Below are positions 4,689-62,113 of a stretch of DNA of 64,000 nucleotides, piece by piece. Numbering within the stretch: the first letter of the stretch is position 1; every line of letters begins with the position of its first letter. Source of the DNA: Hamadaea flava (GTDB lineage Bacteria; Actinomycetota; Actinomycetes; Mycobacteriales; Micromonosporaceae); NCBI RefSeq assembly GCF_024172085.1, contig NZ_JAMZDZ010000001.1:6944001-7008000 (forward strand). The letters are read 5' to 3'. The translations under genes were made by a program, and so were the position numbers. The notes under the pieces are model-generated. The model searched no databases. It was not told where the DNA came from and saw only the letters and a list, made by a program, of their open reading frames with translations.

Positions 4689-5855
4689 CTAGGCGAGGGG
4701 GTCGGCCAGGAGTTGCTCGAAGGCCAGTTCGGCTGCGCCGAGCAGCGCCGCGTCGTCGCCGAGCTGGGGCGTACGCAACCGGACGTGCTCCCGGCAGGCG
4801 GCGAGCGCGTTGTGGTTGAGGCGGCTGCGTACCTGGGCGGCGGAGGCGAGATAGACGTCGCGGAGTGTGCCGCCGAAGACGACCAGCTCCGGGTTGAAGA
4901 TGTTGACGAGGTTGGCCACGCCGAACCCGAGCCAGTCGCCGACGTGGCGGACGGCCGCCTGGGCTTCGGCGTCACCGCGGGCGGCGGCGTCCACCACGGC
5001 CAGCACGGCGTCCCGCCCGAGCTGGCCCGAGCGGCCCGCGTGTCGCAGCAGTGACTCCTCGCCGATCTCGGTCTCCCAGCAGCCCCGGGAACCGCAGCCG
5101 CAGGGGCGGCCGTTCGGGTTGACCACCATGTGGCCGACCTCGCCGCCGTAGCCGCCGTGGCCGGTGACGCGGCGGCCGCCGGCGATGATCCCCGCGCCGA
5201 TGCCGACGTCGCTGTAGACGTAGATGATGTTCGAGCAGCCCTGCGCGGAGCCCCGGGTGTGCTCGGCCAGCGCCGACAGGTCGGCCACGTTGCCGACGAC
5301 CACGCTGGGCAGCAGGTCGGGCAGCTTCTCGGCCAGCGCCTCGCCGACCGGCTGGTCGAGCCAGCCGAGATGCGGGCCGAGCCGGACGACGCCGTCCTCC
5401 CGGCGGACGAGGCCGCAGACGGCGACCCCGGCGCCGATGCAGCGGGCGCCCGGCCCGACGCTCGCCTCCATCGACTCGATGAACTCCCGCAACGGGGTGA
5501 CGACGTCCTCGGCCGGACGTTCGGCCTCGCGGCGATCCATGATCACGCCGCCGAGCCCGATCCGGGCCGCGCTGATCCGGTCGACGCCGACGCTCGCGGC
5601 GTACGCGTAGATCAGCTCGGAGGACGCGCGGACCACAAGGGACGGCCGGCCCGCGCGCCCGGTCTCCCGAGGCGCCTCTTCGCTGACGAGGCCGACGGCC
5701 GCGAGTTCCGCGGTCAGCGCGCCGATGGTGGAGCGGTTGAGACCGAGTTCGGAGGTGAGTTCGGCGCGGGAGATCTGGCCGCGCACGTGCACGAATCGCA
5801 GCAGCGCCCCGAGGTTCTGGCGCCGGATCTCCTCCTGGCTCGGTCCCGCCCGCAT
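4689..5855 (-). CDS. ROK-family transcriptional regulator of the sugar operon
   Basis: This 388-aa protein has an N-terminal winged helix (recognition region about residues 29-52, SRAELTSELGLNRSTIGAL) followed by a ROK sugar-kinase-like domain. The ROK zinc motif CGCGSRGCWE is near residue 250, preceded by the EVGH segment. The length and layout match XylR/NagC-type repressors that bind sugar and release operator DNA. It is the last gene of a leftward operon, 37 bp after the permease, so it is probably the local repressor or autoregulator. The actual sugar is inferred from the binding protein. Confidence 0.9.
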   Translation of the reverse strand: MRAGPSQEEIRRQNLGALLRFVHVRGQISRAELTSELGLNRSTIGALTAELAAVGLVSEEAPRETGRAGRPSLVVRASSELIYAYAASVGVDRISAARIGLGGVIMDRREAERPAEDVVTPLREFIESMEASVGPGARCIGAGVAVCGLVRREDGVVRLGPHLGWLDQPVGEALAEKLPDLLPSVVVGNVADLSALAEHTRGSAQGCSNIIYVYSDVGIGAGIIAGGRRVTGHGGYGGEVGHMVVNPNGRPCGCGSRGCWETEIGEESLLRHAGRSGQLGRDAVLAVVDAAARGDAEAQAAVRHVGDWLGFGVANLVNIFNPELVVFGGTLRDVYLASAAQVRSRLNHNALAACREHVRLRTPQLGDDAALLGAAELAFEQLLADPLA

Positions 5856-5892: not shown

Positions 5893-7152
5893 TCAGGAGG
5901 TCGCCGAACGACGGCGGAACAACGCGTCCACGCCCGCGGCGGCCAACAGCACCGAGCCGGTGAAAACGTACTTCACCCAGGAACTCAGGCCCAGCAGCCC
6001 CAGACCGTTGACGATGACCGCCACGACGAGGCCGCCGAGAATGGCGTCGAGGATTCGGCCCCGGCCACCGAAGAGGCTGGTACCGCCGATGACCGCCGCG
6101 CCGACGGCGTACAGCAGGACGTTGGAGCCGCCCGTGTTCGGGTCGACCGACCGCGCCTGGCTGACCGCGACGATGCCGCCGATCGCCGCCATCGACGAGC
6201 AGATGACGAACGCCGCGATGCGGATGGTGTCCACCCGGATGCCGGCCCGGCGGGCCGCTTCCATGTTGCCGCCGACCGCGTACACGTGCCGGCCGAACCG
6301 GGTGCGGCGCAACACGATCGTCCAGAAGACGAGCAGGACGGTGATGATCGGCACGATGATCGGCAGACCCTTGAGGGAGCCGAAGATCGCGGGGTTGCGG
6401 GACCGCTCCTCGTTGAGCACCGCGACCGCGACGCCGAGCAGGACGGCGAGGCTGCCGATGCGCAGCGCGACGATCTCCCACGGGTCCGAGGCGAGGCCGC
6501 GGTTCATGCGCTTGAGCTTCGTGACGATCTGGACGGCGGCCAGGCCGAGCACGGCGACGGCCACGAACGCCCAGCCGAGCATCGGCGACAGGTATTCGTT
6601 CTCCAGCGCGATGATGACCGTCTGGTTGTCCCGGATGGAGATGTTGGTGCCCTCTTTGAGCAGCCGGAGCACGACGCCCTGGAAGGCGAGGAAGGCCGCG
6701 AGGGTCACCACGAACGACGGGATGCCGACCTTGGCGACCAGGAAGCCGAGCAGCACCCCGATCGCGGCGCCGGTGACGATCGCGATTCCGCAGGCCGCGT
6801 ACCAGGGCCAGCCCTCGTTGGTCAGCAGGATCGCGAGCACCGCCGCGCACACACCTGAGGTGAAGCCGGCCGACAGGTCGATCTCGCCCAGGAGCAGGAC
6901 GAAGACCAGGCCCATCGCGATGACCGTGATCGGCGCGGCCTGGGTGAACAGGTTCGCGATGTTGAGCGGCGCGAGGAACGCCGGGTTCAGGATGGTGAAC
7001 AGGGCACAGAGGAAGACCAGCCCGGCCACGGCGGGCAGCGCGCCCAGGTCGCCGCCGCGCAACTTCCGGCCGTAGTTCTTCGCGTACGCGATGAGCGGGC
7101 TTTCGGCGCGCTCGGGCGTGGCCACCGTCGGGGTGGTCGTCGCGGTGCTCAC
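5893..7152 (-). CDS. xylH: Sugar ABC transporter permease (XylH/RbsC type)
   Basis: A 419-aa polytopic membrane protein of the ribose/xylose permease family (BPD_transp_2). The segment GEIDLSAGFTSG matches the conserved GxIDLSVG loop of this family, and about ten hydrophobic segments are visible. The start is GTG at 7150-7152, which overlaps the TGA of the ATPase gene by 4 bp. Upstream in-frame sequence is out-of-frame ATPase coding and was excluded. It forms the membrane channel with the ATPase at 7149 and the binding protein at 8034. The xylose assignment is by operon context. Confidence 0.88.
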   Translation of the reverse strand: MSTATTTPTVATPERAESPLIAYAKNYGRKLRGGDLGALPAVAGLVFLCALFTILNPAFLAPLNIANLFTQAAPITVIAMGLVFVLLLGEIDLSAGFTSGVCAAVLAILLTNEGWPWYAACGIAIVTGAAIGVLLGFLVAKVGIPSFVVTLAAFLAFQGVVLRLLKEGTNISIRDNQTVIIALENEYLSPMLGWAFVAVAVLGLAAVQIVTKLKRMNRGLASDPWEIVALRIGSLAVLLGVAVAVLNEERSRNPAIFGSLKGLPIIVPIITVLLVFWTIVLRRTRFGRHVYAVGGNMEAARRAGIRVDTIRIAAFVICSSMAAIGGIVAVSQARSVDPNTGGSNVLLYAVGAAVIGGTSLFGGRGRILDAILGGLVVAVIVNGLGLLGLSSWVKYVFTGSVLLAAAGVDALFRRRSATS

Positions 7153-9308: not shown

Positions 9309-9354
9309 TTCAGTCACGCAGTTTTAACCTGCGAAGAAACGCAGCTCCCACCAC

Positions 9355-9417
9355 GTGCAGATCATGGTTACGCCGGTAACCCGGGCGCGGAGAAGCACGC
9401 GTAACCGTGATCTGCAC
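9355..9417 (-). terminator. 19-bp-stem hairpin downstream of the ArsR-like gene
   Basis: Arms 9355-9373 (from GTGCAGATCATGG) and 9399-9417 (ending GTGATCTGCAC) pair over 19 positions with one G-U-type mismatch, around a 25-nt loop. It begins 27 bp beyond the stop of the leftward gene at 9445, so it would terminate that transcript before the sugar-operon promoter. There is no T-run. Confidence 0.55.
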
Positions 9418-11795: not shown

Positions 11796-11861
11796 GCGCG
11801 ATCATGAACTATCGGCCATGATCGACCGGCGTGTCGTGTCCCCAGCGCCCTGATCAACTCC
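11796..11861 (+). repeat. Dispersed GATCATG element, copy 1
   Basis: The core is GATCATG (11800-11806), ten bases, then CATGATC (11817-11823), a perfect 7-bp hairpin. It is followed by GACCGGCGTGTCGTGTCC and CCTGATCAACTCC. A second TGATCAACT unit lies 20 bp further on (11871). Copies near 17105, 22524, 41222, 46512 and 62028 share this layout. Confidence 0.85.
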
Positions 11862-11931
11862 GCGAGTACGTGATCAACTGACCCCAGGCGGGTCGCGCTG
11901 CTTGTCCCGGGCGGTGCTGGCGCATTGCCGT

Positions 11932-16869: not shown

Positions 16870-16893
16870 GATCATGAACTTATGGTCATGATC
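16870..16893 (+). repeat. Dispersed GATCATG element, core-only derivative
   Basis: GATCATGA, eight bases, then TCATGATC gives a perfect 8-bp hairpin. The downstream part does not keep the GACCGGCGTGTCG segment of other copies, so this is a degenerate or truncated member. The 22-bp array abuts its left side. Confidence 0.7.
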
Positions 16894-17104
16894 AGCTGCG
16901 GATCAGCCGCCATTCATGATCAAGTGCCCGTGGTCAGCGATCGAAGGGCAGTTTTGAAGATCAAGTTCCGGTGGTATGCGGAAATGAGCACTGTCGCGCA
17001 TACCTGGGGACATGATCTCCGTTTCCAGCCGTACAACGCAGCTGTAGGGCACTGGACCAAGCTCGGCCCAACGTCCGGCCCTGACGGCCTGTTGATCATG
17101 GAGT

Positions 17105-17173
17105 CGGGGGATCGATCAGGGTGCTGCGGACGCGACACGCCGGTCGATCACGACCGATAGTTCATGATCGCGC
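17105..17173 (-). repeat. Dispersed GATCATG element, inverted copy
   Basis: Read on the minus strand it gives CGCGATCATGAAC, CGTGATCGACCGG, CGTGTCGCGTCC and CCTGATCGA, matching the other copies. The core is 17146-17169. GC-rich repeats lie beyond its GCGCG end, on the same relative side as the arrays at other copies. Confidence 0.85.
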
Positions 17174-21811: not shown

Positions 21812-22488
21812 GCCGCCGTGGGCTCGGCGAGCCGTTGCCGGTTCACGACCTGGCCGACCGGTACGCCAAATGGCACGCCGAGAAGGTCTACGAGTGGGAG
21901 GCCGGGCGGCCGACGTATCGGCTGACCGGCCCGGACGACTCCGTCCGGTACGTCAAGCTCACCCCTTCGACGGGGCGGCTGCACGACGAGGCCCTGCGTA
22001 CGCGCTGGGCCCTGCCGTGGGTCCGGGTCCCCGAAGTGGTGGAGTTCGGCAGCGACGGCGACCACGACTGGCTCATGACCACCGAACTGTCCGGAGTGGA
22101 CGCTTCGACGCATCCGCTGCGGGCGGCCGACCCGGTCGCGTTGGTGACGGCGTTCGCCCAGGGCCTACGGTTCTTCCACGACACCGTGCCGGTGGACGAG
22201 TGCCCGTTCTGGTTCCCCGACCTGCCGCCCGACGCCGACCTCGTCGTCTGCCACGGGGACTACGTCCTGCCGAACGCGTTCCTCACCGGCGACGTCGTCA
22301 CCGGGTACATCGACCTCGGCGACCTCTGCGTCGCCGACCGGTGGCTGGACCTGGCCGTCGCGCTGAACAGCCTGGAACAGCCGTACAACATGGGGCCCGG
22401 GTACGCCGACGCCTTCCTCTCGGCGTACGGGGTCTCGCCGGACCCTGAGCGGGCCGCTCGGTACCTCGCTCTCTACGACGCTCGCTGA
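21808..22488 (+). CDS. Aminoglycoside phosphotransferase (APH)-family protein
   Basis: A 226-aa kinase-fold protein. It has the APH catalytic motif HGDYVLPN (149-156) and a second metal-binding region beginning IDLGD (168-172), with a candidate ATP-contact Lys50 in RYVKL. It resembles APH(3')-type kinases but is shorter (about 260 aa is usual). Its start (GTG 21808) overlaps trpA, so it is expressed with tryptophan synthase. It may confer aminoglycoside resistance or phosphorylate another small molecule. The sequence does not decide. Confidence 0.85.
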   Translation: MSRRGLGEPLPVHDLADRYAKWHAEKVYEWEAGRPTYRLTGPDDSVRYVKLTPSTGRLHDEALRTRWALPWVRVPEVVEFGSDGDHDWLMTTELSGVDASTHPLRAADPVALVTAFAQGLRFFHDTVPVDECPFWFPDLPPDADLVVCHGDYVLPNAFLTGDVVTGYIDLGDLCVADRWLDLAVALNSLEQPYNMGPGYADAFLSAYGVSPDPERAARYLALYDAR

Positions 22489-22523
22489 CCGCTCGCCTAC
22501 CCCGCGTTCTCTGCCTTCTCTGC

Positions 22524-22589
22524 GCGATCATGAACTATCGGTCGTGATCAACCGGTGTGTCGTGTCCCCAGCACCCTGATCGACTCCGT
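22524..22589 (+). repeat. Dispersed GATCATG element, copy near 22.5 kb
   Basis: The core is GATCATGAAC to CGTGATC (22526-22549), followed by AACCGGTGTGTCGTGTCC, then CCTGATCGACTCC, and a second CCTGATCAACTC at 22596. No clear tandem array precedes it (only CTTCTCTGC words). A 33-bp array lies downstream instead. Confidence 0.85.
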
Positions 22590-22610
22590 CCGGCCCTGAT
22601 CAACTCGGCG

Positions 22611-22696
22611 CGGCCGGATGGGCGTGACCGGATCAAGTCAGCGCGGCCGGATGGGCGCGACCGGATCAAGTCAGCGCGGCCGGATCTGCTCAGCGC
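22611..22696. repeat. 33-bp tandem array, two full units plus a partial
   Basis: The unit begins CGGCCGGATGGGCG and ends ATCAAGTCAGCG, with starts at 22611, 22644 and 22677. It lies between the dispersed element and the flavodoxin-like gene. Confidence 0.85.
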
Positions 22697-22747
22697 GCCG
22701 GGTCGGGCTCGGACGCCGAGCGTCCGGCTGGATGGCAGGCTGGGGGC

Positions 22748-23209
22748 GTGGCCCGTCTGCTCGTCGTGCATCATACGACCTCACCCGTCCTGCAGGAGAT
22801 GCTCGAAGCCGTGCTCGGCGGGGCGCGTACGGATGAGATCGAGGGCGTCGAGGTGGTGACCCGGCCGGCGTTGGCCGCGACCGTCCCCGATCTGCTGGCC
22901 GCTGACGCGGTGCTGCTCGGCACCCCGGCGAACATCGGGTACATGTCGGGTGCGCTCAAGCATTTCTTCGACACGGTCTACTACCCGTGCCTCACCGACA
23001 AGGTCGGGCTGGCGTACGGGCTCTATGTGCACGGCAACAACGACACCTCCGGAGCGGTGCGGGCGGTGGAGACCATCGCAGGCGGCATGTCCTGGGCGCG
23101 TACGCGGGAACCGGTGGCCGTCGTGGGTGCGCTCGGACCGGCCGATCGGGAGGCGCTGTGGGACCTCGGCGCGGTCACGGCGTACTCCGCGAGTTTGACC
23201 TCAACCTGA
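22748..23209 (+). CDS. Flavodoxin-family / NAD(P)H-dependent FMN reductase-like protein
   Basis: A 153-aa flavodoxin-fold protein starting at GTG 22748. The FMN-phosphate loop is VVHHTTSPVLQEM (about 6-18). The downstream TPANIGYMSGALKHFFD (about 59-75) matches the flavin-contact loop of this family. It probably acts as a small cytosolic redox protein. It is followed 22 bp later by an SDR gene and may be co-transcribed with it. Confidence 0.85.
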   Translation: MARLLVVHHTTSPVLQEMLEAVLGGARTDEIEGVEVVTRPALAATVPDLLAADAVLLGTPANIGYMSGALKHFFDTVYYPCLTDKVGLAYGLYVHGNNDTSGAVRAVETIAGGMSWARTREPVAVVGALGPADREALWDLGAVTAYSASLTST

Positions 23210-41224: not shown

Positions 41225-41290
41225 GATCATGAACTATCGGTCGTGATCGACCGGCGTGTCATGTCCCTAGCGCCCTGATCGTTCCCCCAG
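41222..41290 (+). repeat. Dispersed GATCATG element, copy near 41.2 kb
   Basis: The core GATCATGAAC to CGTGATC (41225-41248) is followed by GACCGGCGTGTCATGTCC and CCCTGATCG. It lies between the Rrf2-type gene and the sulfate operon. Confidence 0.85.
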
Positions 41291-41299
41291 CGGCATGAT

Positions 41300-41400
41300 C
41301 GCTGCCAGCGCCAGCCGGGAAGTTGCCAGCGCTTGCCGGGCAGCTGCGAGCGCTGGCCGGGGAGCTGCCAGCGCCGGGAGCTGCCGGCGCTTGCCGGGGG
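41300..41400. repeat. Irregular repeats of GCCAGCGC / GCCGGGGAGCTG words
   Basis: Words such as GAGCTGCCAGCGC and GCGCTTGCCGGG recur at about 20-28 bp intervals. The unit is not constant, so array boundaries are approximate. Confidence 0.5.
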
Positions 41401-45265: not shown

Positions 45266-46486
45266 GTGGAACTGGCCCGCCGGCTCGGCCCGGCCGACGC
45301 GGTCGTCATCGGGCTCGGCTCGATGATCGGAGCCGGCGTCTTCGCGGCGTTCGCCCCCGCCGCGCGAGCCGCCGGCAGCCTGCTGCTCGCCGGACTGACC
45401 GTGGCCGCCGTCGTCGCGTACTGCAACGCCACGGCGTCGGCCCAGCTCGCCGCGCAGTACCCGACCTCCGGCGGCACCTACGTCTACGGCCGCGAACGGC
45501 TGGGGGAGTGGTGGGGCTACGTCGCGGGCTGGGGGTTCGTCGTCGGCAAGACCGCCTCCTGCGCGGCCATGGCCTTGACGTTCGCCGCCTACGCCGTACC
45601 CGCGCCCTGGCAGCGCCCGGCCGCCGTCGTCGCGGTCCTCGCCCTGGCCGCGGTCAACTACCGCGGCGTCACGCGTACCGCCCGGCTTGCGATGATCATC
45701 GTCGTCGCGGTCCTGGCCGTGCTCGCGGTGGTCGCCACCGCGGGCCTGCTGGGGCCCCCGGGCCCAGCAGCTTCGCGCGGCGCGTCACCCTACGGGGTCC
45801 TGCAATCGGCCGGTCTGCTGTTCTTCGCCTTCGCCGGGTACGCGCGGATCGCGACCATGGGAGAAGAGGTACGCGAGCCGCAGCGCACGATTCCGCGAGC
45901 CATTCTGACCGCACTGGCCCTGGCCGTCGGCGTCTACGCCGTCATCGGCGTAGCGCTCCTGCACGTCCTCGGCCCGGAGAAGCTGGCCGCGTCGGTCGCC
46001 CCGTTGGCCGACGCCGTGCACGCCGCCGGCTGGAACTGGGCCGCGCCCCTCGTCCGCGTCGGAGCCGCCCTCGCCAGCCTCGGCGCACTGCTGGCCCTCA
46101 TCGCGGGGATCGGCCGCACCGCACTGGCCATGGCCCGCCACGACGACCTGCCCCGCTGGCTCTCCGCCGTGCACCCCCGGTACGCCGTCCCCCACCGAGC
46201 CGAGATCGCCCTCGCCGTCGTGGTCTGCGCGCTCGTGCTCACCGTCGACCTCCGCGGCGCGATCGGCTTCTCATCCTTCGGCGTCCTGGTGTACTACCTG
46301 ATCGCCAACCTGGCCGCCTGGACCCAGACCGGCGCCGACCGGCGCTACCCGCGGATCCTCCAGGCACTCGGCGCCCTCGGCTGCGTGGTGCTCGTCGCCA
46401 CACTGCCCTGGCCGGCGGTCGTCGGCGGGCTCGCCGTCTTCGGCGTCGGCCTGCTCTACCGCGCCCTCCGCCTCCGCCTCGCCTAA
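45266..46486 (+). CDS. APC-family amino acid permease
   Basis: A 406-aa membrane protein with about twelve hydrophobic segments. The first helix carries GLGSMIGAGVFAAFAPAARA, the substrate-binding signature of APC transporters, and AGYARIATMGEEVREPQRTI matches the conserved helix 6-7 region. It starts at GTG 45266, 41 bp after cysA. The substrate is not determinable. It may be co-transcribed with the sulfate genes, but this is uncertain. Confidence 0.88.
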   Translation: MELARRLGPADAVVIGLGSMIGAGVFAAFAPAARAAGSLLLAGLTVAAVVAYCNATASAQLAAQYPTSGGTYVYGRERLGEWWGYVAGWGFVVGKTASCAAMALTFAAYAVPAPWQRPAAVVAVLALAAVNYRGVTRTARLAMIIVVAVLAVLAVVATAGLLGPPGPAASRGASPYGVLQSAGLLFFAFAGYARIATMGEEVREPQRTIPRAILTALALAVGVYAVIGVALLHVLGPEKLAASVAPLADAVHAAGWNWAAPLVRVGAALASLGALLALIAGIGRTALAMARHDDLPRWLSAVHPRYAVPHRAEIALAVVVCALVLTVDLRGAIGFSSFGVLVYYLIANLAAWTQTGADRRYPRILQALGALGCVVLVATLPWPAVVGGLAVFGVGLLYRALRLRLA

Positions 46487-49184: not shown

Positions 49185-49261
49185 TGGTGCCCCCGGTGGG
49201 ATTCGAACCCACACTGTCGGAGGTTTGAGCTCCGCTTCTCTGCCAGTTGGAATACGGGGAC
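49185..49261 (-). tRNA. tRNA with CAA anticodon but class I shape, encoded CCA
   Basis: Read leftward from 49261: acceptor GTCCCCG pairs with CGGGGGC, anticodon stem CGGAG/CTCCG encloses CTCAAAC (anticodon CAA), T-arm GTGGG-TTCGAAT-CCCAC, then ACCA. The variable loop is only five bases (ACAGT), whereas bacterial tRNA-Leu has a long arm. The D-stem (TTCC with GAA plus one extra base) is imperfect. By anticodon it would read UUG (Leu). By shape it is not a normal tRNA-Leu. A -10-like TACTCT lies on the minus strand at 49274-49279. Confidence 0.75.
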
Positions 49262-62027: not shown

Positions 62028-62113
62028 GCGCGATCATGAACTATCGGTCGTGATCAACCGGCGTGTCGTGTCCCGGCGGCCCTGATCAACTCCGCAGGTG
62101 CCTGATCAACTCG
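62028..62113 (+). repeat. Dispersed GATCATG element overlapping a gene end
   Basis: The core GATCATGAAC to CGTGATC (62032-62055) is followed by AACCGGCGTGTCGTGTCC and two CCTGATCAACTC units (62081 and 62101). The second unit supplies the stop codon (TGA on the minus strand, 62106-62108) of the methyltransferase gene. Confidence 0.85.

What the first reader, a model, noticed from the sequence alone, without database searches (positions are those of the whole stretch)
22524..22589. A dispersed intergenic element family with a conserved hairpin core
Seven sites (11796, 16870, 17105 inverted, 22524, 41222, 46512, 62028) share GATCATG, about ten bases, then CATGATC or CGTGATC. Five also keep (G/A)ACCGG(C/T)GTGTC, a (C/A)TGTCC-like word and a CCTGATC unit. 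All are between genes. The left boundary is sharp (GCGCGATC). No transposase, IS ends or rRNA/tRNA similarity is seen. This could be a small mobile element family comparable to REP/MITE elements, or a conserved protein-binding or RNA-processing site.
Basis: seen in the sequence. Interest (0 to 1): 0.8.

Follow-up and report, generated by a model that had tools for sequence, protein, structure and literature searches.

The report
Repeated marker after bacterial genes
A roughly 90-letter DNA element with four precisely spaced GATC sites sits mostly just after genes at about 150 or more places in one soil bacterium's chromosome, and it has stayed in place between related species while the DNA around it was scrambled, which suggests an unknown signal that marks gene ends.

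Summary
The genome (genus Hamadaea, Micromonosporaceae) holds at least 150 copies. Most share one plan: GATC at offsets 0, 20, 52 and 72 plus a fixed centre, with near-random letters between. Three of 4 Hamadaea genomes held carry it; of 296 other family genomes searched, none has a credible copy.

In an unselected 209-kb comparison with a sister species, 10 of 12 copies have a counterpart in the same gap. In 49 orthologous pairs most fixed positions differ in 0-4% (second GATC up to 18%), spacers in 31-61%, flanks in about 63%. So the copies are old and kept by selection. The 'hairpin' is not supported: no long-range covariation in 257 copies and ordinary folding energy. No Y1/RAYT transposase, REP head or target duplication was found.

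Copies lie mainly after stop codons and avoid divergent promoters. They carry a polar C-rich, often tandemly repeated left leader whatever the gene or fork direction. Best reading: a repeat that spread in an ancestor and is now kept as a protein-recognised, probably terminator-like boundary element. Function is inferred, not shown.

The parts
22526..22604 (+). Focal core copy (type A): GATC at 22526, 22546, 22578, 22598; centre word AACCGGTGTGTCGTGTCC at 22550-22567
   Evidence: 131.7 bits. A G003 copy is in the orthologous gap in the same orientation (site 138433).
22466..22525 (+). Left leader of the focal copy: C-rich tract and left edge TTCTCTGCGC; begins inside the predicted 3' end of the upstream gene (stop at 22488)
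   Evidence: C minus G = 0.28. Family-wide in G000 C 0.53-0.55, G 0.21-0.23.
11800..11878 (+). Core copy, type A, between convergent genes; preceded by a degenerate tandem array of GCTGTCCGCGC
   Evidence: 137.7 bits. G003 carries type B in the same gap.
16870..16893 (+). Divergent copy: first module only, GATC at 0/20/31/48/69/89
   Evidence: A subtype C copy lies elsewhere in the same G003 gap.
17091..17169 (-). Core copy, type A, minus strand
   Evidence: 143.3 bits. Aligned counterpart in G003.
41225..41303 (+). Core copy, type A; the orthologous G003 gap lacks it and has another palindrome; the G001 gap has its own GATC-containing repeats
   Evidence: 126.2 bits
46516..46571 (.). Double copy: two opposed overlapping elements between convergent genes (stops at 46486 and 46607)
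   Evidence: G003 has type B in the same gap.
62032..62110 (+). Core copy, type A, between a DNA polymerase I gene and a convergent gene; tandem array to its left
   Evidence: 140.6 bits. G003 has subtype C after the same gene.

Best explanation
The element is a polar DNA unit of about 90 bp: a C-rich leader ending in CTTTCCGCGC, then a 79-bp core with four (T/C)GATC(R) sites at 0/20/52/72 and a fixed central word. Shown here: it is confined to three related Hamadaea genomes, most copies in an unselected stretch share their gap with a sister species, and the fixed letters and spacings are held by selection while spacers and flanks randomise. Inferred: it spread to its many places in their common ancestor; the core is read as double-stranded DNA by a lineage-specific protein through the phased GATC sites; it marks the ends of transcription units, most likely by stopping or roadblocking RNA polymerase after genes, with the C-rich leader giving transcripts a Rho-loading-like tract. 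No expression or binding data were available.
For: Strict grid: 35 of 40 copies inspected contain 0/20/52/72; the 20-bp pair spacing is kept in the rare copies whose right pair is shifted to 62/82, 54/74, 75/95 or 76/96. Selection: 49 orthologous G000/G003 pairs, first, third and fourth GATC 0-2% different, second GATC 2-18%, most other fixed words 0-12%, spacers 43-49 and 63-71 31-61%, flanks 62-64%; 28 G000/G002 pairs show the same contrast. Unselected 209-kb stretch: 10 of 12 gaps keep an element in G003. Sequence rather than stems: the top 26 dependencies among 257 copies are all within 3 positions of each other. Location: 117 of 150 lie 3' of a same-strand gene, median 39 nt after the stop; 13 take the gene's stop at -7 and 3 at -1 from the element; 74 of 150 between convergent genes against 15 of 92 gaps in the unselected segment, 11 of 150 between divergent genes against 27 of 92. 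Seven of 7 neighbouring pairs under 250 bp apart are convergent. Leader: C 0.53-0.55, G 0.21-0.23 in all four gene-orientation classes of G000 (148 copies) against C 0.34-0.37, G 0.33-0.34 after 61 element-free stops.
Against: 33 of 150 copies are not 3' of a same-strand gene, and in tandem gene pairs the bias is only 43 to 22 (p 0.013). The leader is as C-rich in those copies, which a plain terminator for the upstream gene does not explain. Two of 12 gaps are empty in G003, so single copies are dispensable, and G001 lives without the family. No reader protein, RNA 3'-end or expression data. Gene calls come from my own finder. The fixed letters could also be read in RNA.
Confidence: 0.4

Rival explanations
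1. A non-autonomous mobile repeat family (REP/MITE/BOX-like) moved by an unidentified enzyme; it sits at gene ends because insertion elsewhere is harmful, and has no host function.
For: At least 150 copies in G000, many in G002 and G003, none by grid in G001. Different subtypes in one orthologous gap (A and B at 11800, A and C at 62032). The two modules are imperfect inverted repeats. Other palindromic families occur in the same genomes. An AbiEi/DUF559 nuclease-like gene is tightly flanked by inverted copies in G000 and G003 and missing at that place in G001.
Against: No Y1_Tnp in 4 of 4 genomes. No target duplication above permutation at 7 lengths. Few weak copies in the fetched loci: 3 of 151 below 80 bits in G000 and 5 of 77 in G003, although loci were picked by score; whole-genome G003 has 51 of 149 hits below 77 bits, some of them other subtypes. 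Fixed core against saturated spacers at orthologous sites is not expected of inert copies.
Confidence: 0.27
2. An RNA element of 3' UTRs: transcribed in sense, it folds into hairpins that stabilise or process the mRNA 3' end, preceded by a Rho-loading tract.
For: 117 of 150 in sense 3' of genes. C-rich, G-poor, A-poor leader on the sense strand. RNAalifold draws short helices with 19 pairs whose changes are mostly G-U compatible. Subtype D in G003 is a long near-perfect palindrome.
Against: No distant covarying pair in 257 copies, though many stem positions never vary. Mean energy only about 0.8 sd below mononucleotide shuffles, and sense is lower than antisense in only 55 of 148. Pair 8-17 broken in 35%. 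The leader is just as C-rich without a sense gene upstream.
Confidence: 0.2
3. A chromosome-organising site: a DNA-binding protein uses the dispersed arrays to structure the nucleoid, and gene ends are merely where such sites do least harm.
For: Phased sites without covariation. Uneven spread: 119 of 148 copies within 2.5 Mb of dnaA, 29 beyond. Fork direction nearly even, 80 to 68.
Against: Two of 12 gaps empty in G003 and none in G001. Scarcity far from dnaA may only reflect accessory DNA there; this was not tested.
Confidence: 0.1

Closest known systems
REP / BIME sequences with RAYT (Nunvar et al. 2010, PMC2817692; abstract and outline, Background, and the section 'RAYTs in other bacteria' read)
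   Same: More than 100 extragenic copies per genome, clade-specific, imperfect inverted modules often paired (the paper mentions 89-bp R0 repeats of P. fluorescens), proposed protein binding and a role in Rho-dependent termination.
   Different: No GT(A/G)G head and no PF01797 gene in four genomes; a fixed four-GATC grid with near-random spacers, no stem covariation, and a polar C-rich tandem leader.
Pneumococcal BOX / RUP / SPRITE repeats (Croucher et al. 2011, PMC3049150; abstract and outline read)
   Same: Small interspersed repeats confined to one species and a near relative; modular.
   Different: Their authors judge them parasitic, with extensive secondary structure. Here most sites are kept between species at about 92% protein identity and structure is not supported.
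Mycobacterial MIRU (recalled, not looked up)
   Same: Actinobacterial dispersed repeats that can supply stop codons to neighbouring genes.
   Different: Different sequence; MIRU themselves form tandem units, whereas here the left leader is tandem.
Rho utilisation (rut) tracts (passages of PMC4499133 and PMC13289151)
   Same: C-rich, G-poor tract on the transcript strand near gene ends.
   Different: Those passages tie rut to no conserved 79-bp core; here the tract also precedes copies with no sense gene upstream.

Membership tests
REP/RAYT | More than 100 extragenic copies per genome | tested here: met
   (context by my own gene finder)
REP/RAYT | GT(A/G)G head next to a GC-rich palindrome (definition from PMC2817692) | tested here: not met
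   Left edge is CTTTCCGCGC or GTT in the 35-row alignment
REP/RAYT | Cognate Y1 (PF01797) transposase in the genome | tested here: not met
   0 of 4 Hamadaea genomes at E 0.001; control rings in 5 of 14. Two of the genomes are draft MAGs.
MITE | Terminal inverted repeats | tested here: inconclusive
   Modules 1-24 and 53-76 share only GATCA..GG..TGATC as inverted repeats
MITE | Target-site duplication | tested here: not met
   Lengths 2, 3, 4, 5, 6, 8, 9 against permuted flanks, 148 copies, no excess; old insertions could have lost it
MITE | Parent transposon with the same ends | tested here: inconclusive
   15 of 24 proteins listed between neighbouring copies were scanned: no transposase, one AbiEi/DUF559 gene. 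No whole-genome scan for other transposases.
Structured RNA element | Covarying base pairs | tested here: not met
   257 copies, top 26 signals all within 3 positions; invariant stem positions say nothing
Known Rfam family | Match to a curated covariance model | tested here: not met
   Only tRNA in the window at gathering score; two chance-level hits on 22400-22750 at relaxed threshold
Rho-dependent terminator | C-rich, G-poor tract on the transcript strand | tested here: met
   but present also in copies without a sense gene upstream
Rho-dependent terminator | Transcripts end there in a Rho-dependent way | not testable with these tools
   No RNA data held

The most novel reading that the evidence does not exclude
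A lineage-specific genome-wide system not described before: an unknown protein complex reads a four-GATC grid (20/32/20 or 20/42/20, near whole helical turns) at gene ends, and some activity tied to the element's polarity keeps regenerating a C-rich tandem leader on its left side, independent of transcription and replication direction. A once-selfish repeat thus became a boundary code for the genome, with the AbiEi/DUF559 gene between inverted copies as one candidate partner.
Probability: 0.15. Interest if true: 0.8.

Novelty: new variant of a known kind. Interest (0 to 1): 0.6.

Why it matters
Bacterial dispersed repeats are usually read as decaying parasites (recalled). Here is a family absent from a congener yet kept at shared places between sister species while its spacers and flanks randomised, so the domestication of a repeat can be followed directly. 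It may show how transcription units are bounded in a high-GC actinobacterium. The polar C-rich tandem leader is an unexplained mutational or selective signature that can be tested.

Tried and rejected
Rejected or weakened. (1) Chance: shuffle and reversed controls were 0. (2) REP/RAYT. (3) Known RNA. (4) Conserved hairpin; RNAalifold did draw helices. (5) Phage origin: 0 hits to one pattern in viral contigs. (6) Fork direction as cause of the left tract: no difference between 80 codirectional and 68 head-on copies. (7) Local transcription as its cause: no difference between 116 copies with a sense and 32 with an antisense left gene. (8) G-quadruplex: C-runs no more frequent than in shuffles, 509 against 521. 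(9) Most 'empty' G003 sites were artefacts of locus de-duplication or carry subtype B. (10) Pairs 0.25-3 kb apart are convergent in 10 of 13, which looked like cassettes; the genes between them are ordinary in the 15 of 24 proteins scanned, apart from the DUF559 lead.

Against my reading or weakening it: tandem repetition is also raised on the right side, though less (19 of 148 against 51 of 148). G001 gene ends carry tandem arrays without the element in 18 of 47. The C excess at 8 orthologous G001 edges is lower but not absent (0.07 against 0.21). The second GATC differs in up to 18% of orthologous pairs.

Limits. Gene calls are from my own codon-usage finder. A1 uses 35 of 40 copies; 5 irregular ones were dropped. 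The 257 copies passed a weight matrix made from A1 (75 bits), so they lean to type A. The G003 loci were chosen for holding elements, so its 49 of 54 is biased upward. In the 209-kb test one copy without orthologous neighbours (6843041) and one missed by the search pattern (6833108) were not counted. G003 subtypes C and D were not tested in the reverse direction. Covariance searches cap at 131-150 scored hits. Twelve genomes besides G000, G002 and G003 show 1-7 weak model hits (best 5.2e-5); they were not inspected.

Literature: eight searches of the held open-access library listed no paper that I recognised as describing this family; most subscription journals are not held.

Full report
WHAT WAS CHECKED. 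The window is G000:C1:6944001-7008000 of an 8,864,410-bp single-contig genome. The genome is therefore a Hamadaea (Micromonosporaceae); no tool named its species. A scan of the 84,980-species collection for one core pattern returned 16 stretches, 3 from Bin2.24 and 13 from Bin8.36 (which may leave out the window's own genome).

THE OBSERVATION. All seven sites are there; corrections are in the observation field. Genome-wide there are 144 hits to the first module, 140 exact four-GATC grids, 156 with one mismatch, and 150 of 150 scored candidates in a capped covariance-model run, worst 78 bits. Reversed-pattern controls were 0.

ANATOMY. Of 40 copies inspected, 35 contain GATC at 0, 20, 52 and 72. 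In those 35, 39 of 100 alignment columns are invariant while others approach random. Consensus: CTTTCCGCGC, GATCATGAACTATCGGTCGTGATC, GACCGGCGTGTCGTGTCC, seven variable letters, CCTGATCAACTCC, nine variable letters, TGATCAAC. Each GATC is flanked as (T/C)GATC(A/G). Subtype B moves the right pair to 62/82, about one helical turn further; rare copies have 54/74, 75/95 or 76/96. G003 also has subtype C, lacking the second GATC, and subtype D, a long palindrome with GATC at 0 and 52.

STRUCTURE OR SEQUENCE? RNAalifold finds short helices with 19 pairs. Across 257 type-A copies (148 G000, 77 G003, 32 G002) the top 26 dependencies are all within 3 positions of each other, and no distant complementary pair stands out. 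Pair 8-17 is broken in 35%. Mean folding energy is -32.0 in sense and -33.2 in antisense, against -28.2 (sd 4.6) and -30.4 for mononucleotide shuffles; sense is the lower in 55 of 148. Many stem positions never vary and say nothing. Recognition of letters at fixed spacing, on DNA or RNA, fits better than a selected stem.

WHO HAS IT. Of 300 genomes of the family, G000, G002 and G003 have 140, 103 and 76 exact grids, G001 (same genus) has 0, and of the other 296 two have one hit each whose sequence does not resemble the family. With the model, 12 genomes besides those three (of 31) show 1-7 weak hits, G001 one at 9.9e-4; these were not inspected. In 60 kb of G001 syntenic to the window (main matched pieces 75-82% DNA identity) no copy reaches 20 bits on either strand. 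One looser palindrome, GATCATGACTCATTGATCATGATC, was noted there. Gaps matching the 41225 and 46516 sites carry G001's own GATC-containing repeats. For 11800 and 22526 the neighbours are only partly syntenic in G001.

OLD AND CONSERVED. In a contiguous comparison not chosen for elements (209 kb of G000 against 198 kb of G003; 148 orthologues, median 92.7% identity), 12 G000 sites had an orthologous neighbour. Ten have an element in the same G003 gap: type A in six, B in two, C in two (for 16870 the C copy lies elsewhere in the gap). Two do not: window 41225, where another palindrome sits, and 7019060. All 7 G003 copies found by the same search have a G000 copy in the same gap. In 49 orthologous pairs the first, third and fourth GATC differ in 0-2%, the second in 2-18%, CATGAAC, CCGG and GTGTC words in 0-12%, spacers 43-49 and 63-71 in 31-61%, flanks in 62-64%, about what unrelated DNA of that composition gives. 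With G002 (28 pairs) spacers differ in 18-46% and the GATC words in 0-7%. Five more G000 sites lack type A in G003; the same five G003 loci carry subtype B, two of them aligned directly. The 49 and 5 come from loci chosen for holding elements; the 10 of 12 does not. Purifying selection in place follows; conversion between copies would have homogenised the spacers too (inference).

WHERE IT SITS. By my gene finder 117 of 150 copies are 3' of a same-strand gene (median 39 nt); 74 lie in convergent, 43 in sense tandem, 22 in antisense tandem and 11 in divergent gaps. The 92 gaps over 60 bp of the 209-kb segment are 15 convergent, 27 divergent, 41 and 9 tandem; in all fetched G000 loci, element gaps included, 130 of 624 are convergent and 193 divergent. 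Thirteen upstream genes take their stop at -7 and three at -1 from the element. Seven of 7 neighbouring pairs closer than 250 bp are convergent. In G003, 56 of 73 are sense-3'.

THE POLAR LEADER. The 50 nt from -60 to -11 are 53-55% C, 21-23% G and 8-9% A in all four gene-orientation classes of G000 (148 copies); G003 shows 47-49% C and 21-26% G (72 copies), and G002 is similar on 27. After 61 element-free stops in G000, C is 34-37% and G 33-34%. Tandem repetition reaches the threshold in 47 of 148 leaders against 1 of 38 control gene ends in G000 and 4 of 51 in G003, but 18 of 47 in G001, which lacks the element. Fifty-eight further copies of the left-edge word lie upstream against 8 in shuffles; the right side is also raised, less so. 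Neither fork direction (80, 68) nor the strand of the left gene (116, 32) changes the leader. At 8 orthologous G001 edges the C excess is 0.07 against 0.21, a small sample.

INTERPRETATION. Shown: a clade-restricted family, mostly shared gaps, selection on fixed letters and spacing, 3'-end location, polar leader. Inferred: protein recognition, boundary or termination function, spread in the ancestor. The chief difficulty for a plain terminator is the 33 of 150 copies without a sense gene upstream but with the same leader. The chief difficulty for a plain parasite is the selection at each site. A repeat that spread and was recruited as a protein-read boundary reconciles most facts.

A LEAD. Between purA and purD an AbiEi_4/DUF559 gene of 326 aa (L170:5144-6124) lies 50 bp from one copy (5015-5093) and 6 bp from an inverted copy (6131-6209). 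In G003 the gene (83% over 310 aa) lies between two inverted copies and between purA and purD; in G002 (88%) one flanking copy, beside purD, was seen on the fetched piece. DNA of the gene is not matched between purA and purD in G001, where other genes are predicted. DUF559 genes occur elsewhere in all four genomes (6, 5, 9 and 9 matches in G000, G002, G003 and G001), and the gene was picked after looking, so this is only a lead in the style of RAYT genes flanked by REPs.

KNOWN KINDS. It works like REP/BIME-type repeats in abundance and location but fails the head and RAYT criteria (PMC2817692). It resembles pneumococcal BOX-type repeats in clade restriction (PMC3049150, abstract). rut tracts are described as C-rich and G-poor in passages seen of PMC4499133 and PMC13289151. 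Eight literature searches listed no description of this family that I recognised.

Noticed in passing
window about 9354-9414; more copies in the 209-kb G000 segment: A second palindromic dispersed family, CAGATCACGG(A/T)TA(C/T)GCATGC...CCGTGATCTG: 13 hits to its first ten letters, 10 to the longer form; outward flanks also C-rich (0.46).
   Followed up: partly
G003 contig C99 (L226-L228, L311-L319): Another G003 family, GCGCTGGATCAGGG(A/T)TC..GGGTCGAATCTTGG with its inverted half, 8 hits to its CAAGATTCGACC word; the two arms seem by eye to change together.
   Followed up: no
L170:5015-6209 (G000 about 4.699 Mb): AbiEi/DUF559 gene tightly flanked by two inverted copies between purA and purD; same in G003 (L230), one flank seen in G002 (L294), not found there in G001.
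   Followed up: partly
whole G000 genome: dnaA is at 4,834,685. Of 148 copies 119 lie within 2.5 Mb of it and 29 beyond; of the 150 listed none lies at 1.5-2.0 Mb and one from 8.0 Mb to the end.
   Followed up: partly
L285, L286, L287 (G001): G001 has its own GATC repeats (TGATCRTTTACGGCTG.., TGATCATGTARCGCCAT.., spaced 42) and frequent short tandem arrays after stop codons.
   Followed up: partly
G000, G003 and G001 segments: GATC is about 3 times over-represented in coding and intergenic DNA alike; CTAG is strongly depleted in coding DNA.
   Followed up: no
window 49185-49261 (-): tRNA-Leu(CAA), the only tRNA and the only Rfam match at gathering score in the window.
   Followed up: no
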